From Candidatus Woesearchaeota archaeon (GTDB taxonomy: Archaea; Nanobdellota; Nanobdellia; Woesearchaeales; JAGVYF01): a stretch of DNA of 46,473 nucleotides. The notes beneath the pieces were generated by a model. That model saw nothing but the letters and a program-made list of their open reading frames with translations, had not been told where the DNA came from and did not search any database. Each line of letters begins with the position of its first letter. Position 1 is the first letter of the stretch. Shown here piece by piece: positions 1,664 through 33,465 of the stretch. The DNA lies in contig JACQSS010000006.1 in NCBI GenBank assembly GCA_016211195.1, positions 1 through 46,473 of the forward strand, given 5' to 3'. The translations under genes were made by a program, and so were the position numbers.

Positions 1664-3629
1664 AGTCCTCATCACGAGCGGTGGCATTATCTCAAAGATT
1701 GACGATGTTCGCTCTCTCGGGAATATGAGCAAGGGCACAACCGGTGCACTCATTGCAGAGGGTTTCCTCACGAGAGGAATCATCGTACATTATGTCTGTG
1801 GGAAGAATACAGAAATGCCATTCAGAAAAGCCCTTGCTCTTGACCCCACCCAGCCAATTGATGACCTGATTAAAAAAGTACGTGACGCCCATGCACAATA
1901 CAACCAATTAAGCCATCTCCTGCATGTGCACATTACTGAGACTTTTAATGAGTATCTGAGTACGGTACAGCGCATACTTCTCACCCGACCAATTGACGCA
2001 GCAATCATGGCAGCAGCTGTTCCGGATTACAGCGTACCAGCATCTCCGGGCAAAATCAGTTCTGACTGTGAAACACTGACCATCCATTGTACAAGGAATC
2101 CAAAAGTTATCTCGCTTATCAAGCAATGGTGTCCCGGGGTTTTCCTTGTGGGCTTCAAACTCCTTGCGGACGCAGAACCTCAGACATTGATTGAAACCGC
2201 ATATCAGCAGGGCATAAAAAATAATGCAAATCTGACTGTAGCAAACACGATCTACCGGGGCGACTTCGGGCAACGTACCACCTATATCATTACACCCGAA
2301 AAAGGTATCACTCCGGTTTCAACGGGAGACATCGCAACAAAACTGACTGAAATGATCTGCCAGCGCGTGTCACAGCGACATTATGCGACGGAATTGACAA
2401 TTGACAAGAAATATCAGTCCACATATTCTGAGGACATCACAAGTTTCAGACAGATAGTGCAAAAGTTTTGGAGACTGAACCTGTTCGAGCCATACGCAGA
2501 AGCAGATGATATGCATTTCGGTTTTGTTGCCATGCGCCTGAAAGAAGGCTTTCTCATCACTGCGAGAGGCAGCAGTAAGAAAGATTTGCCACCGGAGGAC
2601 ATCGTCCGGGTGCGTGGTGTTGACTTTGACCGGCGTGTTGTTCATGTCATATCCGAAGGCAAAAAGGCCTCACTGAATGCGAACGTGGCTGCAATTATTT
2701 TTGCGCAACGGCCGGAGGTCTCCATCATTCTGCACGCGCACATCTTTCCCGGTACTGACAACAAGACAACTGTCGACTATGCACCGGGCACTGAAGAGGA
2801 TATGAGCGAGGTTATGAGTCATCTTCGCGACAAAAACATTGTGGAGGTAGTGAATCATGGGATGATTGCACTGGGAAAAACATCTGAAGATATTATTCAG
2901 CTGCTTGGAGAAGAACACGTGTATAAGCAATGCCCTCTGTGGTACGATGCGGTGTACAACAGGTTCCACCAGTCATCAGACTTTCTTGGGCTGGTCATGC
3001 AAACGGTCAGGAAGGAGGAAGCAATCCTTGATGTCGCTGCAGGTACAGGAGAAGTAACTGCCCATCTGGTGAACAATGGGTATACAACCATAGCCATGGC
3101 AGATAAGCGCTCCAGCATGCTTGCCATTGCACAGCAGAAAGCTCCCGGAAGTCAAGTCTATGAAGCTGACATGACAACCATGAGGCTTGGCAGAAGATTC
3201 AACACAATTGCCATTAGGCAGGCAATCAATTATGCCATGGATTATGCCGGGCTTGTGCAGACCTTCAGGACAATGCACACACATTTACGCCAGAATGGCA
3301 GGCTGATCTTTAACGCGCCGAATGCAGTGGCTGCAGAGTTCAGTGAAAAAATGTTTACCTACGAGATAAATGATTATGTGCTTCATGTGCGCGAAATGAA
3401 TACTGTTGAGAATGGCGTCGTGACGCATACACAGTTGTGCAGGGCAATAAAAAAAGATGGAACCGCCATAGAAAAGATATATGATCTGAATAGGTTTGGC
3501 CTGTTTAGCAAGGCTGACTTTGAAAAAGCATTGCATGAGGCCGGCTTCAGAACTGTTTCTTTCTTCGGAAAAGGGCTGAATACATACACGCCAGAATCAA
3601 AAAGTCTTTATTGTGTCGCGAGGAAGTAG
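1647..3629 (+). CDS. Three-domain fusion: CoaB-like (phosphopantothenoylcysteine synthetase-like), class II aldolase/adducin-like, SAM-dependent methyltransferase
   Basis: N-term 'VLITSGGIISKIDDVRSLGNMSKGTTG...AAIMAAAVPDYSV...GKIS...NPKVISLIK...VGFKLL...ANLTVANT' (CoaB-like). Middle 'LNANVAAIIFAQRPEVSIILHAHIFPG...VEVVNHGMIALGKT' (class II aldolase). C-term 'EEAILDVAAGTGEVTAHLVNNGY...MADKRSSML' (methyltransferase). Confidence 0.88.
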   Translation: MSSVHEVLITSGGIISKIDDVRSLGNMSKGTTGALIAEGFLTRGIIVHYVCGKNTEMPFRKALALDPTQPIDDLIKKVRDAHAQYNQLSHLLHVHITETFNEYLSTVQRILLTRPIDAAIMAAAVPDYSVPASPGKISSDCETLTIHCTRNPKVISLIKQWCPGVFLVGFKLLADAEPQTLIETAYQQGIKNNANLTVANTIYRGDFGQRTTYIITPEKGITPVSTGDIATKLTEMICQRVSQRHYATELTIDKKYQSTYSEDITSFRQIVQKFWRLNLFEPYAEADDMHFGFVAMRLKEGFLITARGSSKKDLPPEDIVRVRGVDFDRRVVHVISEGKKASLNANVAAIIFAQRPEVSIILHAHIFPGTDNKTTVDYAPGTEEDMSEVMSHLRDKNIVEVVNHGMIALGKTSEDIIQLLGEEHVYKQCPLWYDAVYNRFHQSSDFLGLVMQTVRKEEAILDVAAGTGEVTAHLVNNGYTTIAMADKRSSMLAIAQQKAPGSQVYEADMTTMRLGRRFNTIAIRQAINYAMDYAGLVQTFRTMHTHLRQNGRLIFNAPNAVAAEFSEKMFTYEINDYVLHVREMNTVENGVVTHTQLCRAIKKDGTAIEKIYDLNRFGLFSKADFEKALHEAGFRTVSFFGKGLNTYTPESKSLYCVARK

Positions 3630-7081: not shown

Positions 7082-8311
7082 CTATCCAACAGCACCCCGC
7101 ACGCGCATCCGGGCCATTGCATGGGCAGCTGCATCCTTTACTGCAGAGGAGGCAGACTCATCTTTGACAATGGCTGAAAGCGTCTCATATGCAAGCCTGT
7201 CACCAAGCTCACCCAACACGTTGATGGCCACAAGGTCATGGTCCTGATATGCGAAACGAAGCAGCTCCTTGACCACCACCGGAGACTGGACGCCGACAGC
7301 AAGAAGCAGCTCACGGGCAGGCTGCGCAGGGTCCTGCAACAGGGGATTCCGTACACCCAACATAGCAGCCACTGCGGCTTCGGGATTATTCTTTGCCAGC
7401 AACGCCACCGCACGTGCTTTTTCCGGGTGAATCAGCAAAATACCCGTCACGCGGTTGAGGATTGGTTCTGAAGGTTCAATGCGCAACCAGATTTCATCTG
7501 CATACGGACCAAGATTCGGATCAGTCAGGATATCCAGCAGCCGAGGTATTGTATCTAGAGGGTCAACTGGAGCAAGACGAGCAAGAACATCGACAACCGG
7601 TTCCTTATCCGGCGCCTCTTTCAGGGTGGCGATCAGTGAAGGAAACATTGCCCTCGTTGTCGAGCTACTCAACAACCCTATCTCTACGAGGGATTCTGCG
7701 ACACTAGACCGGACACCTTTATTACTGTCTTTCAAGGCAGTTATGAGTTTCGTGACAGCCACCCCGGGAGTCACAGCGCCAAAGAATTCCCGCACACGGG
7801 TTACAAATTTTTCAACTTCGGGATACCGACCGGGGCCTGTGACAGTCATCAGCGAATCACGATACTCCCGGCCAATAAGCCGCAAAGAATCCGCGGCTGC
7901 TGCACGGATATCAGGCAACTCATGATCCAATCCTTTGACAAGATCTGACAAGCTGTCTGCTTTTACCTCGATTTCAAGGTCAACCTGAGGCACGATAAGA
8001 GAGACTTGTTTAAAGAGATGGTATTGATCCTTTGCCCAAGGAATCAGCTCGTTCAATGGTTCTTCCCTGATTGCATCAATATAGCGTGAAGCCACGTCTT
8101 TACCAAAGGATTCCAGTTCAGGCTTCGCAGCCCGCAAAAACCGGGCTTGCTCAGAGTTGTATAATGCAAATAACTCATCTGATGTCTTTGTATCCAATTC
8201 TTCACGTCCAAATCCAAGACCCACAAGGTCATCCTTTATCTTCTGATCATTGCATGCAGCCCATGTGACCTGTGCTGCGAGCAGAAAGATGATAACCATT
8301 GCAATTTTCAT
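7082..8311 (-). CDS. Secreted HEAT-repeat protein
   Basis: Signal peptide MKIAMVIIFLLAAQVTWAA; repeated HEAT-like segments ('LVKGLDHELPDIRAAAADSLRLIG', 'LITALKDSNKGVRSSVAESLVEIG', 'NVLGELGDRLAYETLSAIVKDE'). N-term resembles that of the upstream kinase-like gene. Confidence 0.8.
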   Translation of the reverse strand: MKIAMVIIFLLAAQVTWAACNDQKIKDDLVGLGFGREELDTKTSDELFALYNSEQARFLRAAKPELESFGKDVASRYIDAIREEPLNELIPWAKDQYHLFKQVSLIVPQVDLEIEVKADSLSDLVKGLDHELPDIRAAAADSLRLIGREYRDSLMTVTGPGRYPEVEKFVTRVREFFGAVTPGVAVTKLITALKDSNKGVRSSVAESLVEIGLLSSSTTRAMFPSLIATLKEAPDKEPVVDVLARLAPVDPLDTIPRLLDILTDPNLGPYADEIWLRIEPSEPILNRVTGILLIHPEKARAVALLAKNNPEAAVAAMLGVRNPLLQDPAQPARELLLAVGVQSPVVVKELLRFAYQDHDLVAINVLGELGDRLAYETLSAIVKDESASSAVKDAAAHAMARMRVRGAVG

Positions 8312-10266
8312 ATTGGGCAGCCCTCCGACGGTTTCTCTTCTTTGACTTTTTTCGCGATTTTCTCAAGCGCTGCAACAAGTTGCCGATTCTGTGCGGCATC
8401 TGTCTTGAGCGTTGCGACAGCGGTTGCAACTTGCGATTTTATAGTACCTGTCGGATCAAGAGCAGCTTCAATATCTATACCACCAAGGTGGCCATCCCTT
8501 AAAGGGGAACCCCGTGCTTCCTGATGCCGTTGCATTTCCTTTCTGATCTCCCCAGCACGATACAGGGCATCCTGCGATTTTTCACGTAAGATCAGTTCGT
8601 CTAAGGTCAATGTCAGCTTGGTTGCCAGCTGCCGCTGCTGGTCAAAAAGTGCGCTGGGGTCCTTTTTTGCTTTGAGCGCTTGCTCTAACTGGAGATTAAG
8701 TCGTTTCAGTTGCGAAAGGAAGGTATCTGCCTGTGTTTTGGGCAATATTTTCCCCTCACGCAGCTGCTGCTTGTAGCTGAGCGCATCCCGGACATCCTGA
8801 TAAGAGAGCAGTGTCTTCCCCAATTCTGCAAAGACCCGAGGACTTGCTACAGAGCCATATAATGTATTAAACTTGTCCATCATTTCAAGATGATGATACT
8901 TACGTGAGACGTCACTAAAGCCAAACAGGCCACTCACCTTCCGATACATGTCTTCCTTAAGCTTATCAAAAAAGAACCGCTCTTTGGGAAATTCTTTGGA
9001 AAGGACGTCCTGCGCAAGTCTATACCCGATGGTATCAGCAAGGATTTCTTCTATGCTTTCTGTCTCTGTGCCAAAGTCTCCCTTACGCCGGCCTCCCTGA
9101 CGGAAAAAGACATGCGATGCTTCATGGAATAATGTTGACATGGCCTCATAGATGTTCGACATCTTTTCATGGAGCTCAATATTGCGCAAGCCAGCATTGC
9201 CCAGTTCTCCACTTTCTGCACCCAAGTCCTTCACTTCGAGCCTTGGCAAATCAATGCCAAAGAGGGGCTGGAAGAAAGTAGCGAGCAATTCTTTATAGAC
9301 ACCTGCTGCCTTCTCCCGTGTTTGTGGCGTGAGTTCTTGGGGCAGAAGCTGATTGAGGTTACTGGCAAGCGCTTCCCGCGATTTCCGTGCAAGCTTATTG
9401 AATTCAGCCCGCAATTTTGTTGCGTCAGTATGCGCAACATCAAGCTGCGGCCTGCCTGCAAAGTCGCGCAGCACTAAAGTGCCGTCAGGCCGTACAAGGA
9501 TGTTATCTGGGTGGATATCTCCATGGAAAATGCCTGCCTTATTGGCTTCCTGCAGCAATTCTTCAAGAATCCTGAACTGTTCCCTGTATTTGGCAGCATC
9601 GCCCGGCCCAAATGCACGCAAGGGTTCACCTTCAACAAAATCAGAGAGCTGCACTTTCCTTGGCTTGCCATCAATGACCAATTCAGTCTCGCCAAAGTAG
9701 CGTTGCAGATGATCCCTGAATCGTCTGTTGGCAGGTTCATTCAGGAATGTCTCAAGTTTCTCGTGTGCACTTGCACTCTTTTCTGCAACATCTGCAGGAA
9801 CTTTTGGCTTGATAAGCTTGACTGCGACATCTGCCGTCCCGATTTTCATGCGATACACGTCTGCGGTTGTGCCTGTCCCAAGGCGTTTCTGTTTCAGAAT
9901 GGCGGCTGGGTCTGCTGCGATGGCATCCTTGACTACCTTTGTCCGTTTAGCAACATCCGCGTTCTCGGCAGCAACTTTTGCCTTCAGTGCAGTCTCATAC
10001 AATTGACGCTGTAACTCCGCTTGCAAGACCGCATCTCCAGCCGCTTCCTTTGCAGCAAAGCTCCTGATTGTCTCTTTCTGCTGTTCAAGAAATTGGTTGT
10101 CACGGGAAGTCCAGAGACGGCGGACTTCTTCATTACTGAGTGTGCTTAAGCGCTCTTGCGTGAGAAATCCACGTTCGAGCAAGTCTTTCTTCATCACATC
10201 CATAGTCGGGCAGGCTGCCTGCGCAAAAGGCATGAGCAACAGTATGAGAAGAAGTTGTTTCAGCAT
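8308..10266 (-). CDS. Secreted protein kinase-like (ABC1/RIO/APH-type fold) plus HExxH metallopeptidase-like fusion
   Basis: Signal peptide MLKQLLLILLLMPFAQAA; kinase motifs 'RLGTGTTADVYRMKIGTADVAVKLIKP', 'GIFHGDIHPDNILVRPDGTLVLRDFAG'; zincin-like 'MSTLFHEASHVFF...TESIEEILADTIGYRLAQ'. Confidence 0.82.
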   Translation of the reverse strand: MLKQLLLILLLMPFAQAACPTMDVMKKDLLERGFLTQERLSTLSNEEVRRLWTSRDNQFLEQQKETIRSFAAKEAAGDAVLQAELQRQLYETALKAKVAAENADVAKRTKVVKDAIAADPAAILKQKRLGTGTTADVYRMKIGTADVAVKLIKPKVPADVAEKSASAHEKLETFLNEPANRRFRDHLQRYFGETELVIDGKPRKVQLSDFVEGEPLRAFGPGDAAKYREQFRILEELLQEANKAGIFHGDIHPDNILVRPDGTLVLRDFAGRPQLDVAHTDATKLRAEFNKLARKSREALASNLNQLLPQELTPQTREKAAGVYKELLATFFQPLFGIDLPRLEVKDLGAESGELGNAGLRNIELHEKMSNIYEAMSTLFHEASHVFFRQGGRRKGDFGTETESIEEILADTIGYRLAQDVLSKEFPKERFFFDKLKEDMYRKVSGLFGFSDVSRKYHHLEMMDKFNTLYGSVASPRVFAELGKTLLSYQDVRDALSYKQQLREGKILPKTQADTFLSQLKRLNLQLEQALKAKKDPSALFDQQRQLATKLTLTLDELILREKSQDALYRAGEIRKEMQRHQEARGSPLRDGHLGGIDIEAALDPTGTIKSQVATAVATLKTDAAQNRQLVAALEKIAKKVKEEKPSEGCPI

Positions 10267-13200
10267 TGTGCTGCCTCCAATGGTTTTTGGGCTGCTTCTG
10301 CAAAGCGACCCTTCACCTCAGGCGTGTCGACAATTTTAACTGCTTTTTCCCTGACAGGGTCCAGCGCCTTCTTAACATCTTCCAGTTTCGCATCTATGTC
10401 TGCCTTTCTCTCCGGCAGTTTATCTGCCTGTTTCTGGAGCATGTCAAGGAGCTGGTCAGCCAGTCTCTCCAGTTCGGCCCGTTTCGCATCCTTCGTAATT
10501 GAAGTAAAGTCTGTCTTTTCTCCGGAGACTATTTTCTTGACGTCTTCGGCAATATTGATGCGTTGCTTTTCCACTTGATGGAAAAGGGCATCCTCAATGC
10601 CATATTTCCCTTCTAGACTCATGAGTGCCAGCTTATCCAATGCAAAGTCCTTAGCTGCCTGCTCAGAGACAACACTTTCCCGCTTCACTTTCCCCCCTTC
10701 AATGCATGGTCCCTTGCAGAGGACTATCTTTGTATCAGGTACAGCTTGTGCGCCCTTGACAAGATCAACCAACCCTTTGAGGAAGCTCCTCTGGTCGCTG
10801 CCTCTCAGCTTATATGAAGCAATGCCATACTGATTGGTTTTCAGGTTCTCAGGAGTGCACGGGCCCTTGCAGATGATGCCATCCTGCTCATAGAGCCCGA
10901 ATTCACCCGGCTTTCGGATAATATTACCAGCTGCATCGACACGAGCGAGATAATAGCGCTCTTTCGGCTGGTCAGCAGAGTATTCTTTTCCAAATGTTGC
11001 GTCCATGTCTGCCTTGCTGAGTGATTCCAGCATTTCAAAGAGACGCCCTTCCAGTTCACGGCGCGTCAGCTTGCCTTGTTTCGCCCGTTCCAGCATGCTG
11101 GCGCCCAACTCAGGCAGCACAATATCATCCAATGTGCGAATGTCTTTTGCCTCAAGGAATCTTGCCAGTTCCGGATATTTCGTCTTCACATCAGACGACT
11201 GAAGGTCAAGGTCACGCCAGACTTGATTATATTCCTCATGCCGTTTCAACTCACTCATCAGCGCATCCCTTGCTGTCGCCTTCTGTTCAGGTGACGCTGC
11301 AGATAATTTCTCCACCAAACCAGTAACTTTAGGCAGGACATTCATGTCTATTTTTGGCAGATGAGTTTTGATGGGGTCAGTCATGGTGACTGGCACTTCT
11401 ACCCGATGGCCTTCTACTGCTTTGACCACTGCATCATCCAATGTACCCTTTACATGTTTGCCCCTATCACGCAATTCCTTCAGCCCGTCAGGCGCCAACG
11501 CGATATCTGTAACACTGATGAGATTATCCGGTGTCACTTTGCCCCCGTCCAGAACCATCTGCTCCTTGGCACGTTGTTTGGTGGACGTTGCAAGTTCGTC
11601 ACTGACCTTGTTGAGGGAGAAATGAGACTTGAGTCCTTCGGATTTTATCAGATTGATAAAGTCAGCAGTGGCTCGTGCAACGCCCACCGTGATACTGGGA
11701 TGTGTTGGCATTTCAATGATAACCTTTCCTTCTTCACGTCTGATTCTGAATTCTTTACCGCCAACACGCACAACTTCCTCTCCTTTGGCATTTCTGCTTA
11801 TGGGCACTTCTTTGCCGGCCAAAATCACATTCCTTCCCTTGACAGCCACCTCAACATCGCCGATAATAGTCAACCCCTTTGCTTCAACATGCTGAGCGTA
11901 TTCCTTCATGATAGTGAGCATCATATCCTTCGGGTTTGCTCCTTCACGGAAAATGATAGCGAGTTCATCTCCGCCAGTACGGACAAGCTTTCCGTTATCT
12001 CCGAGATTCCTTTCAATAATATCGAGCAGTGACCGCAATAATGCATCTGCTACCTTATTACCCCGTTGCCGACCTGTCGTGCCAAAGAAATTCAGATCAA
12101 TATTGGCTACCTGCACTTTCTCTCCCTTCATAATCCTATCCTGAATAAAGAGATTTGCAGTATTGATGCCGGCAAGAAAGTCCTTGCCTTCAATGTTCTG
12201 CGTAGCGAGTTTCTCTACCACAGCGTCACGTACTTTTTCGAGTTCTACAGCCTTAGCGGCGAATTCAGGCGTTCCCGGCGTGAGCTTTTGCAATTCACCG
12301 ACATGTTTATTGTATTCGGCCACTGCCCTCTGGACACCTCGGTCTACGATATCCTGCCGGAAGAACTCATAATCTTCCTTCAGACTCTCAACACCCCGTG
12401 AGCGGGTAATGTAATCTTCAACCATTGCATCATGTTTCACAACTGCACTCTTTGCGTTTGCCTTGGCGGTATTTGCCTGCTCAGCAGTTGCCTTGGCCGG
12501 GTCTGTTATTCCCCCAATCTCACGAAACTGCGCCACCTTCCCGGCAGAGAGGGCATTCTGATTAATGTCATTAAGGGACTTTATTGTCCCATCGCTAACC
12601 CCTTCAGCAAGGCCAATGTAAGTATTGAATTCTTCTGGTCTCAGTTTATAGGAACTTACTAAGGGGTCATTTATCACTTGCTCACGGAATGCCCGCTCTG
12701 TGGCTTTTCTGACTACCTTCTCCAGCATCCCAAGCTCAAGGTTTTTCCCGGTCATTGAATAGGTTTTTCCAGCATCGTGATTGACAGTTATCTCGCCATC
12801 ACCTTTTATCTCGATAACCCGGATGCCATCACGTACCTGAACGCTGCCACGTCCGCCAAGCTCTTGGAGAACAAGGCGTTCAAGATTCCGTGCAGTGGCT
12901 TCAAGATAGGCATTCCCCCCTTCATGGCCAAACTTGCTGTTGATTTGCTTGAATGCCTGGATATCGATATGCGCTACGCTTACTTTGTCTCCGGCCCTGA
13001 TCGTATTGGCAAGATATTCATTACGCGCATCGATGTTGTTAATGCTCGTGAAACTTTTGAAGGACTGGTCTTGCAGAGCACGCTGAACCTCAAGTGATGC
13101 TTTAATCTCAGGAACCTCCACTTTCACTTCTCCCCCCAACTTCTTATTCGCTTGGTCATATTGCTCCTTCGTGATTTCTCCCCGGCCCAATTCGAAATCA

Positions 13201-16200
13201 AGCAGGTCTGATGTGCGGGCGTTGGCATCTTTGCCCAGTTCCTCAACAGATTTCTCCCCAGGCCGTGCCTCTTCACCAGCCGTCCTTTCCGCAAGTCGTG
13301 TCTCTACTTCATTGAGGCGCTTCAGCTTCTCCAGCTTTTCTTTTGCATTCGCCAATTGCCCCGGCAAGTCTCGGAGTTCCTGCTCAAGCCGTGCCTTCAT
13401 CTCCTGTGCAAAGACATCCTTCGGATTAACTTTCAACATCGCTTCTGCAGTTGCCAATGAGTCTTTGATTTCCTGCGTCTGCACTTGTTCACGTGCTTTC
13501 AGTTGCCTGTCCATTGCATCCAATTCAGAAGCCTTATTCTTCAGCCGCAAAGTCTCTGCTCTTGCTTGTTCAATAGCCGATTTTCCTCCAGCACCGGTGA
13601 TGATGTCTAGTTCACGCACTTCCGCCAGCTTAATGTCACGCTCCGCAGTAAGCAAATCCTTAACAGCCGGGTCTTTCCCGACAGTCAATTCATTGTTCTT
13701 ATGAGAGGCATCAACAAAATCACGCATGGTTTTCGTCAAGTCCTGTGCAGCTGTTTTCAATGCACTTTCGGTCTCCTTGGTCGCTGACTCCTTGTACTTC
13801 TTCTCAGCAGCGTCCAGTGCATTTTTTCTTATAGAGAGTTCAAGAGCAGCCTTCTGTGCGTCAAAGAATGCCGCTGCCTTTGCTTGTGTTTCTGCATCAA
13901 ACTTGCCTTTTTTGAACGTCGTCTCCATGATGCCACCCAACTCCCTACTCAACTCGATGTATGCAGGGTCATTAGGTGCTATACCGCCACGACGCAATTT
14001 CTCCACTTTGGACCTCCATTGAACCAACTCAGGCGCTTCCGGCAGGTCTTTAATGTCCAATGTTTTCTTGTACATGTATGAATTGGCCGTTGCCACAACG
14101 TTGTTTGCAAGGTGGAATATGCCTGCGGTCGCTACGCCCTGTGCAACACGCGTTGCAATATCCTCAACGGTAATGTCTTTTATCGACTGATGTCCAGTCA
14201 CGACATCCGCAAACAAGCCACCCTGCACAAGACTTTTGGCAGAGCGCATGAGTTCCAATGCCTCCTGGCGTGCACCTTCAGTCACTGGCCTTAGGCTGTA
14301 CTTTTCTGCAAGCTTTGCAAACTCTTTATGGGCCGCGGGCTTCCAGAAGGGCATGCCGCCAGCACCCATCATGAACAGGACACTGTGCACATAATCTTCA
14401 GGCTTGGACTCACGGCCTTCTGCAGTCGCCATGACGTGCTCGAAGACTGCACCTTCAACGCCCATCCGGACGCCATAATCCATTGTGGCCAAGATGCCGT
14501 TCCGTATTGCAGGATTGCTTAATGGAGTAAGGAAAGGAACTTTTGCCACGGTTTCAAGCAGACCCCCAGCATAATATGCAGTGGCACCGGCAGCAGCTTC
14601 TGCGATCTTATGTGCAACTGCCCCTGCAACCAGTGTTGCCACAAGGGTTTCAGTATTCAATGTCTGTTCCACAAATCCTTTCTGCAGACCCTCCAGATCA
14701 AATGCTTTTGACTTATCGGAAAATGTTGTTGGGTCAAAGGCAAACCGTGCTTCGGCGAAAATCTGCAACGCCGTGCTGCACTGCTCGGCTGTCTTCCCCA
14801 GTTTCTGGCAGATGGACGCAATCTGGTCTTTAGAGACACCTTGACGTATCTGGTCTGTGGTCACGCCATAGGTTATAGCGAGCTCTGTCGCCAGATTATA
14901 GATGTGTTCGCGTTCCCGTGCTTCCTGTACCATCCTGTCGGTGAATGCAAAGCGTTCCTGCATCTCGGGAGAGAGCACTGCACGGACAGAAGTCAGCCAG
15001 TCCGGACCCATATAGATTGTCTTTCCCTTGCCCAAGGCAGAATCTGCATATCCATACAACGCTTCCTGTGCCATGTCTGCCAGCAGCCGCTCTGCCCTGA
15101 CACCATCTCTAGAGAGCATGTCCTTGAAGGCGGTTTGCGCTGCAGGGTCTGTTATCTTCGTATCAGCAACATCCTTGATGTACCCGTTCATCTCCACAAT
15201 AAGAATGTCTTTCTTGCCCTTTAGCTCCTGTCCCAGACGGACCATTTCCTCCAGCTCATCCTTTTCCCCCGCACTTAAATCTCGCTGCTTCTTGAGCGCT
15301 TCCAATTCTTCTTTCCTTTTTTCCGTGCGACTGAGCAACATTTCTGTCTCCTTCAGCGAGCTTTTCATGCCAGTGAGTGTTTCACCAATCGGCTGGCCGA
15401 TGGTATCCTTCAGTTGCGGCTTGTCTTTGAGTAGCGCTTGCGAAGCAAACACCCGGTCAAGCATGTCCTTCTCTTTCTGAAGCTGTGCCTCAAGAGCTGG
15501 ATCTTTGCCACGCCCCTTGAACCAAAGAAGCTCATTTAATGTATCCACCCGTCCTTGCATTTCCTGTAACCGCTTTACCAGCTGCTCCGGTGTAAGCTTG
15601 GCCAGTTCTTCTCTCAGGTCATCTTCCTTCTTCCTACCAGAGTAATAATCACCAATATCAACAGCCCCATATTTCGCGCAAGCCGTGAAGTCACCTGTCG
15701 GCACTGCCTTGGCTTTAAACTCGGGTGGTAAGCTAGCAAAGATAGCATCCATTCTTCCCTTGGTCTGCTTCAGTGCATAGACTGCATCATTGTATTTTGC
15801 AGAAGCATACATCAGGTCAATCTTCGTATGGGTGTCATCTGTCAACGCTGCCTTTGCATTGTCAAAAGCAGTCTTTAATGGAGCGAGATTGCCGCAGGCG
15901 GACAGATATTGAGCCGCCAACTGCTCAAACTCCTTCAAGAGCTGCTCTGCATTTGCCTCGCAGTCTTTCTCATCCGTTTGTCCGTCACAGTCATCATCCA
16001 TGCCATTTTCGCATTTCTCTTTGGCATCGGGATGGACATTTGCATCTGCATCGTTGCAATCGCCAACGGCCTTGGTGATGGTGGGACACTCCTGCCTACA
16101 GGTCTTGAGGTCAGCACAGTCCTTTGTCGCATAGCTATCCCCATCCTGATCCCATACGCAACCGATGCAGCCGGGCTCGTCCACTTCGCCATTACAGTCA

Positions 16201-19200
16201 TCATCTATTTTGTTCCCACAGAACTCAGGGCTGTCACTGTCATCAGTTTTCCCATCGCAGTTGTCATCCTTTTTGTTGCCGCACATTTCCCTCATGGCAG
16301 GATTGATGGCCTTGTCATCATCATTGCAATCCGGCCCTGCATAGATACCAGGACATTGCTTGATGCAAGTGGCCGATGAAAGGCATGCTGAGGTAACAAA
16401 TTTATCCCCATCAATATCCCCAAGGCAGACTGGCTGAGCACAGGTCCCTTTTACCCGTTGCGTCACATCTCCCACCGTCACAAAACCCTTGTCTTCATCA
16501 TCAATAAATCCATCACAGTCATCATCTATCTTATTGCCACAGATGTCTACTGCCCCCGGGTTGACAGTCAAATCGCTATCATCGCAATCGCTTTTCTTGG
16601 CTGCCTGTTCAGGGCAGCTTGTCCTGCATTTTTCATTGGCAAGGCAAGCTGCTGTTGCATAGCCATCCTTGTCCCGGTCTCCTGGGCAAAATTCTTCCAT
16701 CTCAAATCCGAGTCGTTTCCTGCCAATGAAATGCTGGAATTTACCCTCGTCAATATTGACACAGTGGCCCACCAGACACATCTCTCCTGCCAGGCACTGT
16801 TTGACATTAACATTATTATCATTACAATCCGGGCTAAGCAGGGCATTGCTCGGCAGTGTTGCACTGCATTTCCCGTCAACACAATAGCCCCCTCGGCACT
16901 CCTGATGAGCAGTACAGGTTTGTCCATCGCCCTTTTCTCCCCCCTTTGCCGGTGGCTGTGGAGATACAGTCTTCTTTTGGTTCATGCAACTGATCATACA
17001 GCGCACGTCCCCAAGGCAGCGCGCAGATGGAACACCATCCTTATCATCGTCACGGCAGGCGCACGCCGAATGCTCTGCACAATAAGGCCTCTTCACCATC
17101 ACTCCATCCGGCTCGCCTTCCCAGAGAGGCACCTCCCGCTCTTTCACGACCTCATAATCTAGGCATTGCATATAGCCAGATTCTTGATGCGAAAATAATC
17201 CGGCATAAATCGGGAGAAGATCACCAATCTTCAGAGGGTGGCTTTGCGGTGTCGTCCCTTCTTCGGGATAGGGTATAAACAAAGTTGAGCCAGCCACTAA
17301 TCGAGGCACGAAATGGAAAGACCCAGCACATGCAGAAAGGGATTCTTGGTCTGGACGCTTGCCCATTTCCTGCGCCAGCTCCACGAAGAGGGATTTTGTT
17401 TCTGTCTCTGGTAACCCTTTGAACATGCCAGGTAGATATAATAGGGAAGGAACAGTCGATTCGTGCGGCGCTTTTGCCGGCAATGTCTGCTTAGGCAATT
17501 TATTGATGATCCCCATACCTCTATCAATGAGCAGTCGCCCCCAATCGGTACTTGTGTACGTCTGGGTATCGACGTATGATCGCGATGTCGGTTGGATAAT
17601 GACTTTTGTGAACCACCACCCAGCCTTTCTCGCTTTCGCCATCCTGTACTTAATCTCAGCGAGGGTATCCCCATAGATGGTACTTGTTTCTGTGAATGGA
17701 GGGACCGGATCTTCTTGAGCACAATAACGCGTTACCTTGCCCTGGGCGTCTGTGTGTTGACCCCACTGAACACATTTCCACCCAGCCGGAATACAACGGC
17801 TAGTTATTCCTCCCCCGATTTTCCATGCCATTTTCCAGTCGGCAACAGAAATCGTGCAGTACCGTTTCATCTCATTTTCAAAGGTAAAGATGGGCACCAC
17901 ATTCTTGTCTGCCTTCAGCACATAGGCGTTCGCCAATGGAGACACATCATGCACTTCAGCGACGCTTCCGCCGATGAGAGTATAGTATTCATTGAAGCGC
18001 AGGAAGGAGTCCTTGAATAGCAGTGAATAAAGCTTGGTGACTCCTTGCAGGACCTCTTCCTGGTCTGCCCGTGCTTCACTAAAGAGCTCAACTGGTTGTG
18101 CCCGTTCGGCAACAAGAGCCTCTGCAGTGAGAGAAGTGAGACGGTACACATCATTTGCATTCCACCCAGCGACCTGCTCTTGATATTTTCCGGATGCATC
18201 CTTAACAAATGTATAAACAAACCGTTTGCCATACCGCACATTTTGGACATTAATGGACTGGGCAAGGAGGTACCGGGCGAAATAGGACTGGAGGCGATAC
18301 TGCACAAAGGTTTGGAGCTGATTGACTTGCTTGGTTGACACGGTGGGTATATTTTTGGAAATGGCATCGGGGTTTTGCTCGAGCTCACTGAAATGCTTTA
18401 CTGCTTGAAGACTTGCTCCCGCCAACACAGCATCCTGAATCTGCAATGGTTCCTTAGCGAGAAGAGCAGCGACGGTTTCTGATTCAGTGTTAAACCACAT
18501 CACGTACGCGAGACGTGCTGGAAAAGAGAGTTGATAATAAAACGCCTCGACCTCGGCAGCCAGCACCACCCCTTTCTCCTTGGCCGTCGTGAGCAATGAG
18601 CGCATTTTCGGTATTGTCCCCAAGGGGATAATCAGTCCGTCATACTGGAGCTGCGTTGTTTCGGGGGCTGTTGCGTCCAGTGCACGGCGATAACCCTGAA
18701 GATCACGCAGGCGTCTGAGCGTCTCCTCATTTGCCTGCTGTCCTGCGTCCGGAGGATATTTCTGCAGAACAGCCCGCTTGATGGCATTCTCCAACTCTAC
18801 CGTGATACCTGCGTCAAACAAACGGTATGCAGTGAAATAGGATGCTGCCAGACGTGTCTTTTTTGATGCTTCCTGGGTGGCAAGAGCAAATGTGGCATAG
18901 TCATATGCCCGGACAGTATAACCTATAGCAGTCTGCAACGGCCGTGACATCATCCTAGTTTCCCACACATTCCAATCCAGCGTGCTTCTCGCTTGCTGTA
19001 TTGAGGAAAATGCCTGTTCCAGTGCAGTTTTTGCCTTTGCATATTTTTGTCCATATTCTGCATATGTTTGTACATAATTAAATGCGTTCTGTGCCGTAAG
19101 GAGTTTGATTTTTGCCTCACTTGATGGAGCAACAGCTGACCCGCATTTGGCACATCCACCAGCCCAGGCCAACGCGTTGTCAACTTCATCGATAGCATAC

Positions 19201-19394
19201 TTCATGCCAAGCGTCGCCTCATCACGCAAGGCAGTACTTGCCTTGGACTCTAACACCTTAACCTCTTGCGCAGTCTGGCGTCCTGTTGGCTCGGGGCCAG
19301 TCAGAAAGATAAGAAGTACTGCGAGTGCCACAGCAGACAGCACAATAACATCCCTCTTTTTCTGTCGTCTTGTTGCGTGAGTCATTGGAGACAT
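10260..19394 (-). CDS. Giant (3044 aa) membrane-anchored protein with MopE-like repeats, coiled-coil regions and two GGDEF-like domains
   Basis: N-term RRQKKRD + hydrophobic 'VIVLSAVALAVLLIFLTG'; 'CGNKIDDDCDGFIDDED'-type repeats; GGDEF-like 'VAHIDIQAFKQINSKFGHEGGNAYLEAT...IKGDGEITV' and 'VANIDLNFFG...KVADALLRSL...LVRTGGDELAIIF...SITVGVA'. Start could also be ATG at 19385. Confidence 0.88.
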   Translation of the reverse strand: MSPMTHATRRQKKRDVIVLSAVALAVLLIFLTGPEPTGRQTAQEVKVLESKASTALRDEATLGMKYAIDEVDNALAWAGGCAKCGSAVAPSSEAKIKLLTAQNAFNYVQTYAEYGQKYAKAKTALEQAFSSIQQARSTLDWNVWETRMMSRPLQTAIGYTVRAYDYATFALATQEASKKTRLAASYFTAYRLFDAGITVELENAIKRAVLQKYPPDAGQQANEETLRRLRDLQGYRRALDATAPETTQLQYDGLIIPLGTIPKMRSLLTTAKEKGVVLAAEVEAFYYQLSFPARLAYVMWFNTESETVAALLAKEPLQIQDAVLAGASLQAVKHFSELEQNPDAISKNIPTVSTKQVNQLQTFVQYRLQSYFARYLLAQSINVQNVRYGKRFVYTFVKDASGKYQEQVAGWNANDVYRLTSLTAEALVAERAQPVELFSEARADQEEVLQGVTKLYSLLFKDSFLRFNEYYTLIGGSVAEVHDVSPLANAYVLKADKNVVPIFTFENEMKRYCTISVADWKMAWKIGGGITSRCIPAGWKCVQWGQHTDAQGKVTRYCAQEDPVPPFTETSTIYGDTLAEIKYRMAKARKAGWWFTKVIIQPTSRSYVDTQTYTSTDWGRLLIDRGMGIINKLPKQTLPAKAPHESTVPSLLYLPGMFKGLPETETKSLFVELAQEMGKRPDQESLSACAGSFHFVPRLVAGSTLFIPYPEEGTTPQSHPLKIGDLLPIYAGLFSHQESGYMQCLDYEVVKEREVPLWEGEPDGVMVKRPYCAEHSACACRDDDKDGVPSARCLGDVRCMISCMNQKKTVSPQPPAKGGEKGDGQTCTAHQECRGGYCVDGKCSATLPSNALLSPDCNDNNVNVKQCLAGEMCLVGHCVNIDEGKFQHFIGRKRLGFEMEEFCPGDRDKDGYATAACLANEKCRTSCPEQAAKKSDCDDSDLTVNPGAVDICGNKIDDDCDGFIDDEDKGFVTVGDVTQRVKGTCAQPVCLGDIDGDKFVTSACLSSATCIKQCPGIYAGPDCNDDDKAINPAMREMCGNKKDDNCDGKTDDSDSPEFCGNKIDDDCNGEVDEPGCIGCVWDQDGDSYATKDCADLKTCRQECPTITKAVGDCNDADANVHPDAKEKCENGMDDDCDGQTDEKDCEANAEQLLKEFEQLAAQYLSACGNLAPLKTAFDNAKAALTDDTHTKIDLMYASAKYNDAVYALKQTKGRMDAIFASLPPEFKAKAVPTGDFTACAKYGAVDIGDYYSGRKKEDDLREELAKLTPEQLVKRLQEMQGRVDTLNELLWFKGRGKDPALEAQLQKEKDMLDRVFASQALLKDKPQLKDTIGQPIGETLTGMKSSLKETEMLLSRTEKRKEELEALKKQRDLSAGEKDELEEMVRLGQELKGKKDILIVEMNGYIKDVADTKITDPAAQTAFKDMLSRDGVRAERLLADMAQEALYGYADSALGKGKTIYMGPDWLTSVRAVLSPEMQERFAFTDRMVQEAREREHIYNLATELAITYGVTTDQIRQGVSKDQIASICQKLGKTAEQCSTALQIFAEARFAFDPTTFSDKSKAFDLEGLQKGFVEQTLNTETLVATLVAGAVAHKIAEAAAGATAYYAGGLLETVAKVPFLTPLSNPAIRNGILATMDYGVRMGVEGAVFEHVMATAEGRESKPEDYVHSVLFMMGAGGMPFWKPAAHKEFAKLAEKYSLRPVTEGARQEALELMRSAKSLVQGGLFADVVTGHQSIKDITVEDIATRVAQGVATAGIFHLANNVVATANSYMYKKTLDIKDLPEAPELVQWRSKVEKLRRGGIAPNDPAYIELSRELGGIMETTFKKGKFDAETQAKAAAFFDAQKAALELSIRKNALDAAEKKYKESATKETESALKTAAQDLTKTMRDFVDASHKNNELTVGKDPAVKDLLTAERDIKLAEVRELDIITGAGGKSAIEQARAETLRLKNKASELDAMDRQLKAREQVQTQEIKDSLATAEAMLKVNPKDVFAQEMKARLEQELRDLPGQLANAKEKLEKLKRLNEVETRLAERTAGEEARPGEKSVEELGKDANARTSDLLDFELGRGEITKEQYDQANKKLGGEVKVEVPEIKASLEVQRALQDQSFKSFTSINNIDARNEYLANTIRAGDKVSVAHIDIQAFKQINSKFGHEGGNAYLEATARNLERLVLQELGGRGSVQVRDGIRVIEIKGDGEITVNHDAGKTYSMTGKNLELGMLEKVVRKATERAFREQVINDPLVSSYKLRPEEFNTYIGLAEGVSDGTIKSLNDINQNALSAGKVAQFREIGGITDPAKATAEQANTAKANAKSAVVKHDAMVEDYITRSRGVESLKEDYEFFRQDIVDRGVQRAVAEYNKHVGELQKLTPGTPEFAAKAVELEKVRDAVVEKLATQNIEGKDFLAGINTANLFIQDRIMKGEKVQVANIDLNFFGTTGRQRGNKVADALLRSLLDIIERNLGDNGKLVRTGGDELAIIFREGANPKDMMLTIMKEYAQHVEAKGLTIIGDVEVAVKGRNVILAGKEVPISRNAKGEEVVRVGGKEFRIRREEGKVIIEMPTHPSITVGVARATADFINLIKSEGLKSHFSLNKVSDELATSTKQRAKEQMVLDGGKVTPDNLISVTDIALAPDGLKELRDRGKHVKGTLDDAVVKAVEGHRVEVPVTMTDPIKTHLPKIDMNVLPKVTGLVEKLSAASPEQKATARDALMSELKRHEEYNQVWRDLDLQSSDVKTKYPELARFLEAKDIRTLDDIVLPELGASMLERAKQGKLTRRELEGRLFEMLESLSKADMDATFGKEYSADQPKERYYLARVDAAGNIIRKPGEFGLYEQDGIICKGPCTPENLKTNQYGIASYKLRGSDQRSFLKGLVDLVKGAQAVPDTKIVLCKGPCIEGGKVKRESVVSEQAAKDFALDKLALMSLEGKYGIEDALFHQVEKQRINIAEDVKKIVSGEKTDFTSITKDAKRAELERLADQLLDMLQKQADKLPERKADIDAKLEDVKKALDPVREKAVKIVDTPEVKGRFAEAAQKPLEAAQC
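15955..17060 (-). repeat. Tandem MopE-like Asp/Cys-rich repeats inside the giant protein
   Basis: Four recurrences of C-x-N-(K/G)-x-D-D-(D/N)-C-(D/N)-G: CENGMDDDCDGQTDEKD, CGNKIDDDCNGEVDEPG, CGNKKDDNCDGKTDDSD, CGNKIDDDCDGFIDDED, interspersed with 'DCNDxDxxVxP' and 'DxDGD/DKDGY' units. Confidence 0.85.
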
Positions 19395-22958: not shown

Positions 22959-24872
22959 CTACGTCCTCACGATATCACTAATCATCGTCACATCCACTTC
23001 ATCGAGGATAATGAACTCAGTCACTCCTTCTTCTCCCGTGACCCACCCACCATAATCATTCTTGTCATTGAGCATGCCCCTGCCGAGCCCGCCCCAGTCT
23101 GTCATCGTACTTGCACCAAGACCGGTACTGAAATCAACGTCAATGAGATTCTCGTCATGCGCGACAATCGCACCGCCGATATCGGCAATACGGCCTTTGA
23201 TCCATTGCCCGTTGGTCAATCTGGCTGCTGCAAAGTGGCCTTTGTATTTATCAAAAACAGCCCTCGGCACAGCAAAGTCAGCTTTCTCCAAGGTCCCTCT
23301 CACACCAGGACCACGCCAGCCCCTCTTACTCGCCTCGTACTTGAGGATATTGTTCCTGTCTGATGGGTCAATGATTTCACTGGTAACGTATTTCCCTTTC
23401 TTCCCTTGTTTTGTAAAGAAATGCCGCAGCTTTCCGTCCTTGCCATAGCCAATGCCTGCCCCTTCAGTATAGACACATCTCTCAAAGCTGGAGTAACTGC
23501 CATAATCCCCTTCAAGACAGGTATAATATCGTGTCATGGCCGCCTTATAGGTAGCAACAACATTCTCCGGTTTCTTGGCAAGCACCTGTATCGGTGTTCC
23601 GCCTTCTTCCAGTCGTGCTTTCAATTCCTGTACTTTCCTTGGCAATGGCCGTTCATAAGGAGGTGAGAGCAGCACATCTTCCTGCTCACTTCTACTGTCA
23701 TGAATCCTCACTGCCGGTTTTTTGGACACTGGGTCTCTGCGGAGACCAAAACTGCCTTTGTCATCATCGTAAGTTACTTCCCCAGCGCGATAGAGCTCTG
23801 CTTTTCCCTCCTTTAGGGCATTAAGGAGTTTCACGTTCTGGTCTGCATTATTATAGGACTTATATTTCTCCCCGGGAAACAACTTTTCATAGAACGCCTT
23901 TCTGGCATCTTTGTTCTTCTGCCCACTGCCATAGCCGGCATCCGCAAAAAGGTCTGCAATCGAATTATACTTTGCAGCGTCCGCAGCAGTGAATGGCTTT
24001 GCGCTCTCCTTGCCTTGATAACTATATGTCAGTTGGGTATTTCCCTTTGTGGCAAACAAGCTTGGTACGACCTGAAGCTTTCCATTATCAGCCTTGTAAT
24101 ACCCATTGAGATTGAAGGCACCGTCATTCATTTGGGAGACCATGAACTGGTCACCTTTTTTTGTCATCTTGTTGCCGCCGGCTTTTGCATAGAGCCCTTC
24201 ATCAGCAAAGTAGGTGAATGTCCCCTTTGACACCGAGAGCGCATCCTTGTCAATAAGCATCTTTGCCGGATTTTTCTCATCCGCCGACAATGCAATGCTC
24301 TGCAGTTTACCTTCCTTAATGGTAAATGCAGCACCCTTTGCTGTATCAAAAGCATATTCATGATTGTCAAGGAAAACCTTTCCTTTGCCAGTACCCAGTA
24401 TGCCTTCTTTTGTCTTTTCCACTGCACCTTTGCCTTGTTCAAACTGCATCTCAACACCATCTGCGATAATGGTATTCTTCTTTGAGTCTGCCTTAACATC
24501 ATCGAATCCCTTGAGCACAAGCTCTTCTTCCTTGCCTTCTTTCGTCTTGCGTGTGAAGGAGAAACCGCCTTCTGGTTTCAGGACCACTTTAGTGATGTCA
24601 CTACCCAACGTGGAAATATCAAGGCGGCCGCCTTTGGGATTAACGAGCACAGTCTTGCCATCCAGCTTGCTTTCCGGCAGCAGCTCAAATGCAGTATCAA
24701 CTTTCAGCTGTTTCTTGACATACGCATCAAAATCCGCCTTGTTCTTGTGCGCATCTTCCTGCGCTTTCTTCAGGGATGCATCCAAATCAGCTGGAGCTTC
24801 CAAAGCTACTTCCGCTGCAAGAACTATGCTGATGAGGGTCAGGAACATTACAGCGAGAGAGATTTTCTTCAT
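22959..24872 (-). CDS. Secreted hypothetical protein
   Basis: Signal peptide MKKISLAVMFLTLISIVLAAEVA; 637 aa, no recognised catalytic motif. Overlaps upstream gene by 4 nt. Confidence 0.75.
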   Translation of the reverse strand: MKKISLAVMFLTLISIVLAAEVALEAPADLDASLKKAQEDAHKNKADFDAYVKKQLKVDTAFELLPESKLDGKTVLVNPKGGRLDISTLGSDITKVVLKPEGGFSFTRKTKEGKEEELVLKGFDDVKADSKKNTIIADGVEMQFEQGKGAVEKTKEGILGTGKGKVFLDNHEYAFDTAKGAAFTIKEGKLQSIALSADEKNPAKMLIDKDALSVSKGTFTYFADEGLYAKAGGNKMTKKGDQFMVSQMNDGAFNLNGYYKADNGKLQVVPSLFATKGNTQLTYSYQGKESAKPFTAADAAKYNSIADLFADAGYGSGQKNKDARKAFYEKLFPGEKYKSYNNADQNVKLLNALKEGKAELYRAGEVTYDDDKGSFGLRRDPVSKKPAVRIHDSRSEQEDVLLSPPYERPLPRKVQELKARLEEGGTPIQVLAKKPENVVATYKAAMTRYYTCLEGDYGSYSSFERCVYTEGAGIGYGKDGKLRHFFTKQGKKGKYVTSEIIDPSDRNNILKYEASKRGWRGPGVRGTLEKADFAVPRAVFDKYKGHFAAARLTNGQWIKGRIADIGGAIVAHDENLIDVDFSTGLGASTMTDWGGLGRGMLNDKNDYGGWVTGEEGVTEFIILDEVDVTMISDIVRT

Positions 24873-31365: not shown

Positions 31366-33465
31366 TTACTGCGAGATCACCAATTTTACTGTGCCAAGCA
31401 TCTGTGTCTGTGGATAATCTATCTTCAGGTCCTTTTTGGTGGAGCCAGAGACCTCATAGACAGCCCCATAAGCCGTCATGCCCTTGAGAAGGTCTGTACC
31501 GACGCTTTCAAGATGCAATCCGTTCTGATCGGGGACAGTCAGCGTTATCTCACTTCCCTTCGTAACCGTTACTTTCATCACTTCGTCGCCAGACGATTCT
31601 TTCAGATTGTTCGCGGCAGTAGTCAACAGGACGTCGTGAGTGCTCTTGCCTGAGATATCCTGCACGCCAAGGTCAATCATCAGGCCGCCTTCGGTGACAA
31701 TGATGACTTTATCAGTGCCCACATTACCGTTTCCGTTCAGGTCAACACCTATCTTGGTACCATTTGCCGGAACCGCAAAATTGAACGTCTTGCCGCTAAA
31801 GCTGAAGCTCCCTGCGCCTGCGCCGTTCCCATCAATATCATATGTTGCATCGCGCGTGACACCTGCAAGGTCCTTTATCTGCACTTTCTTATTATCCCGA
31901 TCCAGCGAGAGAAGCTGGTAGACATAGGTCAGTCCTTTCTCGGAATTTGAGTCCGTCAACACGAAATAGTCATCACGGGCGATGTTGCCCGCACTGTCTT
32001 CGGTGAAAACAAGGCTACGGCTGTCGTCGCCAAACCGGAACGTATTGGTGGAATCCATGAATGGTACCGTATAGCTCTTGCCTTGCGTATTCGTGAAACT
32101 CAACTCATAATTGCGGGCATTGCGATGACGGAGCTCAACGGTGCTTGTTTTCTGCTTTGCAAACCCATCATAGACAAGCCCCCAATTCGGCGCCAGCAAG
32201 CTCTCTGGTTCCAGAAGATGATTACGGACGTCTTCACCGACGGGCACATAGACATCATTTTCCGTCCCTTTGGCATCGGCGCGATATTTGAGGAGGTCTA
32301 TGTGCATCAAACCGCCACGACTGGTCGCCCGTATCATGACACGACCTCTGTCCAGCGAGATATCATCTACCCGGACATTACGCTCGAACTGATTATTACC
32401 CGCATCATTATCGGTTAGCTCCACTTGACCAGCGCCGATGAATAGCTCTACCCGATCATCTTCTTCATCATTAAGAATGTCCTTGACTGCGAGACTCAAT
32501 GCATCATCGACCTTAAAAAGGTCACCAATCCTCAAGTCAGGAGATGATTTGCCATTGACAGTAAGCCGTGCCTTGTTGTTCCGCGAATCAACAAGAGTTG
32601 CCTCTACCTCGTATTCCTTGTCTCCGCGCATGAACGTCTGACTGCTGCCCTCTACCAGCAGCGCACTATCGCTGCCACGCAATAATTTCAATGAGACTCC
32701 TTTCTTATCTGGATCAGTCTGTGCAGCAACAATAGTATAAGGTGTTCCAAAGAAGGACATGCGTACCCCAACCATATCATCAAGTCGGTTGTCAGTGCTT
32801 ATCCTGCTTTCGAACCCCCGCGCAAAGTCAATGACATATTCGAACAGGTCATCACCTTGCGTGAACTTGAGGTAATCTGCGACTTTATTAGCACGGTTTT
32901 TTTCATAGGCAAGCTTGCCGGATTCTATAGCATCGTCTGCATCGCCCCCAAAGCGTAGCAGGTATTTCATTTCAATCAAGCCATTTGGCCCGGACACCTT
33001 GGTTGTCGACAGTGCTTTAAGGTCATTCTCGCTCAGCACCTGCTTCCTGCTACCCAGGGCCTTGCCGACATAAATATCTTGGAAGAGGAACTCTTCTGCG
33101 CTGAGCTTTTTCTCAACGCATTGAGCATCCTTGCAGAGATCCGGACAGGTGATATTGTATATGGCTTTGCCCAGCACACATTTCTGGAGGACATTGCCTG
33201 CACAAGCATCTTTCTCGCACACAGGCTTTTTTTCCTGGGGCGTTTCCGCTTCCTCTTTTTCTGGTTCCTCTTCCTTCTCTTCCGTTGGAGCCATTTCCTT
33301 TGGTTTCTCTATTTTCTCGACTTTTTCTTCAGGCGCACCGACTTCGACTGGCTTCGCTACGTCCTGTTCTTCAACTTCAACAGGAATCTCTTCTTCTGCT
33401 TCGAAAAAGACGCAGCCACCAAGAAACAGCATGACGACAAAAAAGAAAAGAGACTTATGAAACAT
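31366..33465 (-). CDS. Surface lipoprotein, S-layer-like beta-rich protein with Pro/Glu/Lys-rich linker
   Basis: Signal peptide with lipobox 'FLGGC', acidic E/P/K linker, Cys cluster 'CEKDACAGNVLQKCVLGKAIYNITCPDLCKDAQC', then 'SFFGTPYTIVAAQTDPDKKGVSLKLLRGSDSALLVEG...VNGKSSPDLRIGDLFKVDDALSLAVKDI'. Confidence 0.7.
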   Translation of the reverse strand: MFHKSLFFFVVMLFLGGCVFFEAEEEIPVEVEEQDVAKPVEVGAPEEKVEKIEKPKEMAPTEEKEEEPEKEEAETPQEKKPVCEKDACAGNVLQKCVLGKAIYNITCPDLCKDAQCVEKKLSAEEFLFQDIYVGKALGSRKQVLSENDLKALSTTKVSGPNGLIEMKYLLRFGGDADDAIESGKLAYEKNRANKVADYLKFTQGDDLFEYVIDFARGFESRISTDNRLDDMVGVRMSFFGTPYTIVAAQTDPDKKGVSLKLLRGSDSALLVEGSSQTFMRGDKEYEVEATLVDSRNNKARLTVNGKSSPDLRIGDLFKVDDALSLAVKDILNDEEDDRVELFIGAGQVELTDNDAGNNQFERNVRVDDISLDRGRVMIRATSRGGLMHIDLLKYRADAKGTENDVYVPVGEDVRNHLLEPESLLAPNWGLVYDGFAKQKTSTVELRHRNARNYELSFTNTQGKSYTVPFMDSTNTFRFGDDSRSLVFTEDSAGNIARDDYFVLTDSNSEKGLTYVYQLLSLDRDNKKVQIKDLAGVTRDATYDIDGNGAGAGSFSFSGKTFNFAVPANGTKIGVDLNGNGNVGTDKVIIVTEGGLMIDLGVQDISGKSTHDVLLTTAANNLKESSGDEVMKVTVTKGSEITLTVPDQNGLHLESVGTDLLKGMTAYGAVYEVSGSTKKDLKIDYPQTQMLGTVKLVISQ

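What the first reader, a model, noticed from the sequence alone, without database searches (positions are those of the whole stretch)
11560..12200. Second GGDEF-like domain keeps an intact GGDEL signature but has an insertion
Seen: 'GKLVRTGGDELAIIF' (GGDEL at 11961-11975), preceded by 'VANIDLNFFG...GNKVADALLRSLLDIIERNL' and followed by 'SITVGVA...KVSDELATSTKQRAKEQ', matching the order of GGDEF core motifs. Between them sits about 45 aa ('VEVAVKGRNVILAGKEVPISRNAKGEEVVRVGGKEFRIRREEGKVIIEMP') not typical of the family. The substrate-contacting 'ND' in the FKxxND motif is altered. It may be an active cyclase with changed specificity.
Basis: partly seen in the sequence, partly recalled or inferred. 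Interest (0 to 1): 0.72.

Follow-up and report, generated by a model that had tools for sequence, protein, structure and literature searches.

The report
Twin-cyclase cargo in giant archaeal protein
A giant, probably exported protein of a tiny-genome archaeon carries a swappable block of two diverged signalling-enzyme (GGDEF) domains, the second of which still has its metal and phosphate-gripping residues; this looks like cargo of a modular effector rather than a standard signalling enzyme, but no activity has been shown.

Summary
At 11550-12179 (minus strand), inside a 3044-aa ORF (10260-19394), lies a GGDEF domain with GGDEL at 11961-11975, FKxxND changed to FGTTGR, and about 50 extra residues (11706-11855). 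Against 40 ordinary GGDEF domains the metal Asp, GG-D-E, the guanine-contacting Asp344, the AD-motif Asp and Lys442 (PleD numbering) are kept. Lys332, Asn335, Asp336 and the RxxD inhibitory site are lost. AlphaFold2 gives a GGDEF core plus a beta-rich insert (pLDDT 84.6). The insert sits in a loop that already varies from 25 to 84 residues in related archaea, so it is not evidence of new chemistry. The context is more informative. A first, degenerate GGDEF domain lies just upstream. The pair (residues 2104-2666) is a discrete module: the preceding 1300 residues match a second giant protein of the same genome that lacks it, while the pair itself matches a 10,066-aa protein of another Woesearchaeota lineage on an unrelated scaffold. 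An N-terminal anchor, Cys-rich MopE repeats and two downstream genes with signal peptides suggest export. Best reading: exchangeable nucleotide-binding, possibly catalytic, cargo of a modular giant surface/effector protein. Activity, product and delivery are not shown.

The parts
10260..19394 (-). Giant ORF, 3044 aa (P0001)
   Evidence: the ORF listing and translate; Pfam GGDEF x2 and MopE x4
19293..19349 (-). Only strong transmembrane segment (res 16-34), after RRQKKR; predicted N-terminal anchor with the rest outside
   Evidence: Kyte-Doolittle scan; topology inferred
15969..16688 (-). MopE putative metal-binding repeats, Cys-rich (about res 903-1142)
   Evidence: PF11617 E 2.8e-24; Cys map
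13092..16991 (-). Scaffold, res 802-2101, shared at 32% identity with the paralogous 3732-aa giant ORF in the same genome (L090:987-12185)
   Evidence: blastp E 2e-165
11397..13085 (-). Exchangeable tandem-GGDEF module, res 2104-2666; matches only the 10,066-aa ORF of another Woesearchaeota genome (L052/L053 = L086)
   Evidence: blastp 29.6% over 615 columns, E 1e-51; A1 profile
12504..13055 (-). GGDEF domain 1, degenerate: keeps D..FK..N..GH..G and AGK; GGDEF loop replaced (HDAGKTYSMTG); Asp344 -> Asn
11550..12179 (-). GGDEF domain 2 (the finding)
11961..11975 (-). GGDEL signature
11706..11855 (-). 50-aa insertion between helix alpha3 and the SIG-type strand; predicted beta-meander, pLDDT about 91-96
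10263..10421 (-). C-terminal tail (res 2992-3044, ...KPLEAAQC) shared with the paralogous giant protein (...KPLEEAVC)
   Evidence: blastp E 5e-4
8308..10266 (-). Downstream overlapping gene: hydrophobic signal-like N-terminus, ABC1/APH kinase-like domain, HExxH zincin-like region (weak Tox-MPTase2 match)
7082..8311 (-). Next overlapping gene: HEAT-repeat protein with signal-like N-terminus

Best explanation
The domain is the second half of a tandem of diverged GGDEF domains that forms one exchangeable module in a giant, probably exported, modular protein of a Woesearchaeota-type (DPANN) archaeon. Domain 1 has lost the GGDEF catalytic loop but keeps a nucleotide-pocket side. Domain 2 keeps the metal- and phosphate-binding residues. 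The most likely working model is an intramolecular pseudo-dimer: the two domains face each other as two cyclase monomers would, domain 2 holds Mg-NTP and is the only possible catalytic centre, and domain 1 is a partner or sensor. The module travels as cargo on a surface scaffold, as in polymorphic-toxin or polyvalent proteins, and would act where NTPs exist, in a contacted cell. Shown: sequence, signature conservation, module boundaries, N-terminal anchor sequence. Inferred: pairing, nucleotide binding, export, delivery, any product.
For: Two GGDEF hits. Alignment with 41 others: invariant Asp64 (Asp327), Phe68, Gly76, Asp81 (Asp344), Gly105, Gly106, Glu108, Asp230 and Lys237 (Lys442). The same residues are kept in the G242 homologue at 35% identity. 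AF2 core with pLDDT 84.6, and the PDB fold hits listed are GGDEF-family structures. Module swap: scaffold homology stops at 2101 and resumes in the tail at 2992, while module homology to a different giant protein runs 2104-2666. Anchor, Cys-rich MopE repeats and signal-like N-termini of the two overlapping downstream genes. C-di-GMP partners are scarce in the order: GGDEF in 36/60 genomes, EAL in 1/60, PilZ in 0/60.
Against: Only one full homologue of the tandem was found, so conservation rests on two sequences plus one rearranged one. Export rests on one hydrophobic segment; no secretion route or recipient is known. Asn335 is lost. The AF2 model of domain 2 used canonical GGDEF sequences, so its fold match is not independent; the tandem model without them was poor (pLDDT 46), so pairing is not supported structurally. 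No immunity gene was identified.
Confidence: 0.5

Rival explanations
1. Both domains are catalytically dead. The pair is a nucleotide-sensing or purely structural spacer in a giant surface adhesin, and the surviving GGDEL reflects fold constraints.
For: Domain 1 has no GGDEF loop. Domain 2 lost Lys332, Asn335, Asp336, the RxxD site and Arg446 (Lys here). An extracellular place would offer no GTP. The genome has no EAL or PilZ match.
Against: The metal- and phosphate-contacting residues are kept in both homologues at about 35% identity. Fold constraint alone should not need the acidic pair and Lys442.
Confidence: 0.33
2. An ordinary intracellular diguanylate cyclase of the archaeon with relaxed base specificity.
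For: Intact GGDEL, Asp344 and Lys442. GGDEF domains are common in the order.
Against: Sits behind an N-terminal anchor and Cys-rich MopE repeats on a swappable scaffold. Partner domain degenerate. Receptor and hydrolase families almost absent.
Confidence: 0.12
3. Gene remnant or assembly artefact: decaying GGDEF domains in a chimaeric ORF.
For: Both domains are diverged and the homologue set is tiny.
Against: 3044 codons without a stop. The module reappears with the same order and linker motifs in an independently assembled genome, and the scaffold reappears in a paralogue.
Confidence: 0.05

Closest known systems
GGDEF diguanylate cyclase domains (PF00990; PleD, WspR, T. maritima tDGC 4URG)
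   Same: Fold, Asp327, GG(D/E)E, Asp344, AD-motif Asp and Lys442 equivalents in domain 2
   Different: Tandem in one chain with a degenerate partner; Asn335 and FKxxND lost; no I-site; 50-aa beta insert; giant-protein context
Polyvalent proteins of phages and conjugative elements (PMC5512222)
   Same: Very large multi-enzyme proteins; the paper describes a gigantic one with GGDEF, zincin and ART domains and suggests nucleotide-signal interference
   Different: Here chromosomal, among housekeeping genes (FttA, proteasome subunit, tRNA-Phe); no phage match and only a weak partial plasmid GGDEF match to the module
Polymorphic toxin systems, including DPANN examples (PMC6393860)
   Same: Conserved N-terminal scaffold with swapped C-terminal modules
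   Different: No recognised trafficking domain, immunity gene or known toxin domain in the module
SPEARE giant surface proteins of nanohaloarchaea (PMC10266531)
   Same: Giant exported-type surface proteins of DPANN archaea, proposed to act on host cells
   Different: SPEARE carry Ig-like and VirB4/TraG-like ATPase domains; none detected by Pfam here
Cas10 / type III CRISPR polymerase (two palm domains)
   Same: From general knowledge: paired palm domains with a single catalytic GGDD
   Different: No sequence relation tested or found; resemblance in layout only

Membership tests
GGDEF domain superfamily | Profile match over the curated cut-off | tested here: met
   57.6 bits against 23.8; domain 2 alone 36 bits in the genome search
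Catalytically competent diguanylate cyclase | Metal-binding Asp327 and GG(D/E)EF acidic pair | tested here: met
   Domain 2 Asp64 and GGDEL aligned with the motif in A6
Catalytically competent diguanylate cyclase | Guanine contacts Asn335 and Asp344, both present | tested here: not met
   Asp344 kept, Asn335 -> Gly; the homologue has both
Catalytically competent diguanylate cyclase | Lys442 / Arg446 phosphate contacts | tested here: inconclusive
   Lys442 kept, Arg446 position is Lys
Catalytically competent diguanylate cyclase | Two competent monomers facing each other | tested here: inconclusive
   Domain 1 lacks a GGDEF loop; tandem model too poor to judge pairing
Catalytically competent diguanylate cyclase | c-di-GMP synthesis from GTP | not testable with these tools
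   Needs protein and assay
Polymorphic toxin-like protein | Conserved N-terminal part with exchanged C-terminal modules | tested here: met
   Boundary at res 2101/2104
Polymorphic toxin-like protein | Known toxin domain at the C-terminus and adjacent immunity gene | tested here: not met
   Pfam finds none in res 2591-3044; the next gene looks like an exported kinase/zincin
Polyvalent protein | Encoded by a phage or conjugative element | tested here: not met
   No match to the module in phages; one weak partial match (28%, 25% of query) in plasmids; chromosomal neighbours
SPEARE giant proteins | Ig-like domains plus VirB4/TraG-type ATPase in the chain | tested here: not met
   Pfam finds only MopE and GGDEF in P0001

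The most novel reading that the evidence does not exclude
A DPANN archaeon exports or injects a fused GGDEF pseudo-heterodimer, with one catalytic and one partner domain laid out like Cas10, that makes a nucleotide signal inside a contacted cell: an archaeal second-messenger effector carried as a swappable cargo module.
Probability: 0.15. Interest if true: 0.8.

Novelty: new variant of a known kind. Interest (0 to 1): 0.5.

Why it matters
GGDEF domains are reported as nearly absent from well-studied archaea, with uncharacterised hits noted in Asgard and DPANN genomes (PMC5847659, PMC8646023). Here they are common in one DPANN order but almost without EAL or PilZ partners, and a diverged pair serves as a swappable module of giant, probably exported proteins. 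If the module is active it would be a concrete, testable way for a host-dependent archaeon to alter nucleotide signalling in another cell. If inactive, it shows GGDEF folds recruited as parts of surface proteins.

Tried and rejected
Insertion as evidence of new chemistry: rejected, since relatives have 25-84 residues at the same place. First genome-contig scan with the single tandem sequence: nothing; repeated with an alignment, one hit, the G242 counterpart. Viral contigs with the tandem alignment: nothing. Phages: nothing; plasmids: one weak partial match to an ordinary diguanylate cyclase. Scaffold profile across the order: only this genome. A domain-1 profile across the class: besides this window only short matches to frames of ordinary size. 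AF2 on the tandem with two sequences: too poor to interpret. Homology between the downstream kinase-zincin gene and the G242 giant ORF: not significant. Literature for the phrase 'diguanylate cyclase toxin': none.

Full report
WHAT WAS REPORTED AND WHETHER IT IS THERE. They lie on the minus strand in a single 3044-aa ORF at 10260-19394. GGDEL is at 11961-11975 as stated, and the 50 extra residues are at 11706-11855. Pfam's GGDEF model hits the protein twice (E 1.7e-15); a search of the window's own genome gives 3.6e-9 for this copy and 2.2e-7 for the one upstream. NCBIfam TIGR00254 also matches over its cut-off. The feature is not chance.

RESIDUES. Domain 2 was aligned with its one close homologue and 40 ordinary GGDEF domains. 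Nine of the ten columns invariant across all 42 belong to the catalytic core or its structural motifs: Asp64 (Asp327 of PleD, metal), Phe68, Gly76, Asp81 (Asp344, guanine), Gly105, Gly106, Glu108 (GGDEL), Asp230 (AD motif) and Lys237 (Lys442, phosphate); the PleD correspondences are from general knowledge of that structure. Lost in the window copy: Lys332 -> Gly, Asn335 -> Gly, Asp336 -> Arg, His -> Asn in the GH motif, Arg446 -> Lys, and the RxxD inhibitory site (GDNG). The homologue keeps Asn335 and Asp344.

INSERTION. In 35 GGDEF domains from the same order the stretch from GGDEF to the SIG strand is 25-84 residues, median 38 (sequences). The window has about 87. Two relatives with intact signatures have 75 and 84. 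The homologue of the module has no insert. The insert is therefore an enlargement of a naturally variable hairpin. AlphaFold2 folds it as a beta-meander with pLDDT about 91-96 in a domain of mean pLDDT 84.6 and pTM 0.75. The PDB matches listed for the model are GGDEF-family structures, led by 4URG from T. maritima. Caution: the alignment behind this model contained canonical GGDEF domains, so the fold match is not independent of the sequence call. A model of the whole tandem from two sequences was poor (pLDDT 46) and says nothing about how the halves pair.

THE PARTNER DOMAIN. Immediately upstream (12504-13055) is a first GGDEF domain. It keeps DIQAFKQINSKFGHEGG and a C-terminal AGK, but the GGDEF hairpin is replaced (HDAGKTYSMTG), and Asp344 is Asn in both homologues. 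The pair is thus lopsided: domain 1 keeps the FKxxN side, domain 2 the GGDEL side. A fused pseudo-dimer with one possible catalytic centre is a reasonable inference, no more.

MODULE BOUNDARIES. This is the strongest new result. A second giant ORF in the same genome (G000:C31, L090:987-12185, 3732 aa) matches the window protein at 32% over residues 802-2101 and again over the last 53 residues (2992-3044), but has no GGDEF pair in between. Conversely a 10,066-aa ORF, open at its contig end, in another family of the order (G242:C7; the same contig in the named collection is JAGVYH010000068.1, Candidatus Woesearchaeota archaeon RIFCSPHIGHO2_02_FULL_33_21) matches only residues 2104-2666 (29.6%, E 1e-51). 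The GGDEF pair is therefore a cassette that has been placed on different giant scaffolds. The scaffold itself was found nowhere else among 353 genomes of the order. Tandem-profile hits below 1e-10 were only the window and G242; viral contigs and phages gave none, and plasmids one weak partial match to an ordinary cyclase.

WHERE IT ACTS. The only strong hydrophobic segment in the window protein is residues 16-34, after a basic stretch; the Cys-rich MopE repeats follow. The next two genes overlap the giant gene and each other (10260-10266, 8308-8311) and both begin with signal-like hydrophobic stretches: a kinase-like/zincin-like protein and a HEAT-repeat protein. This suggests that the C-terminal half is outside the cell, where GTP is not available. 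Either the module is delivered into another cell, or it is not catalytic. The window is otherwise chromosomal and archaeal: an FttA-type beta-CASP factor and a proteasome subunit lie just downstream, and tRNA-Phe, GatB-type amidotransferase and MutS/MutL genes farther along.

GENOMIC BACKGROUND. GGDEF matches occur in 36 of 60 relatives, many with full canonical motifs, but EAL in 1 of 60 and PilZ in 0 of 60, with controls ringing in E. coli and others. HD-GYP and other receptors were not tested. Published surveys call GGDEF nearly absent in archaea (PMC5847659) and mention more than 300 hits, many of them in Asgard and DPANN genomes (PMC8646023).

COMPARISON. It works most like cargo of polymorphic-toxin or polyvalent proteins; PMC5512222 describes a gigantic prophage protein with GGDEF, zincin and ART domains. 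It is not filed as a member: no mobile element, no known toxin domain and no immunity gene were found. SPEARE proteins of nanohaloarchaea (PMC10266531) are comparable giant DPANN surface proteins, but their Ig-like and VirB4-like domains were not detected here.

VERDICT. Observation confirmed; interpretation partly supported. The domain keeps the residues needed to hold Mg-NTP, may or may not be active, and its unusual feature is not the insertion but its use as half of an exchangeable tandem cassette in giant, probably exported archaeal proteins.

Noticed in passing
L054 (G016:C138), whole contig 5988 bases, minus strand, 1996 aa open at both ends: A third, distant tandem: domain 1 like the window's, but in domain 2 the VGGDEL hairpin comes before the ARIDINNFG strand, as if the domain were locally permuted.
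   Followed up: partly
L003 (G000:C72) and L055 (G001:C30): ABC transporter of exporter type with a C-terminal GGDEF-like remnant lacking the GGDEF signature, shared by two species of the genus.
   Followed up: no
L004-L087 (relatives in the same order): Canonical GGDEF domains are common in this archaeal order, yet EAL is found in 1 of 60 and PilZ in 0 of 60 genomes.
   Followed up: partly
L052:8938 onward plus L053 (contig JAGVYH010000068.1): A 10,066-aa archaeal ORF, cut by the contig end, with TPR, tandem GGDEF, calcineurin-like phosphoesterase and several HEAT arrays.
   Followed up: partly
L090:987-4841 (minus): The 1284-aa C-terminal part of the paralogous giant protein that replaces the GGDEF pair has no Pfam match; by eye it contains a nucleotidyltransferase-like GSG...SDRD motif and a C-terminal nuclease-like EVDFVV...VKAE stretch.
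   Followed up: no
window 8308-10266 (minus): Signal-bearing protein combining an ABC1/APH kinase-like domain with an HEASH zincin-like motif.
   Followed up: partly
window 22959-24872 and 31366-33465 (minus): Two long ORFs (637 and 699 aa) without any Pfam match at 0.01.
   Followed up: no
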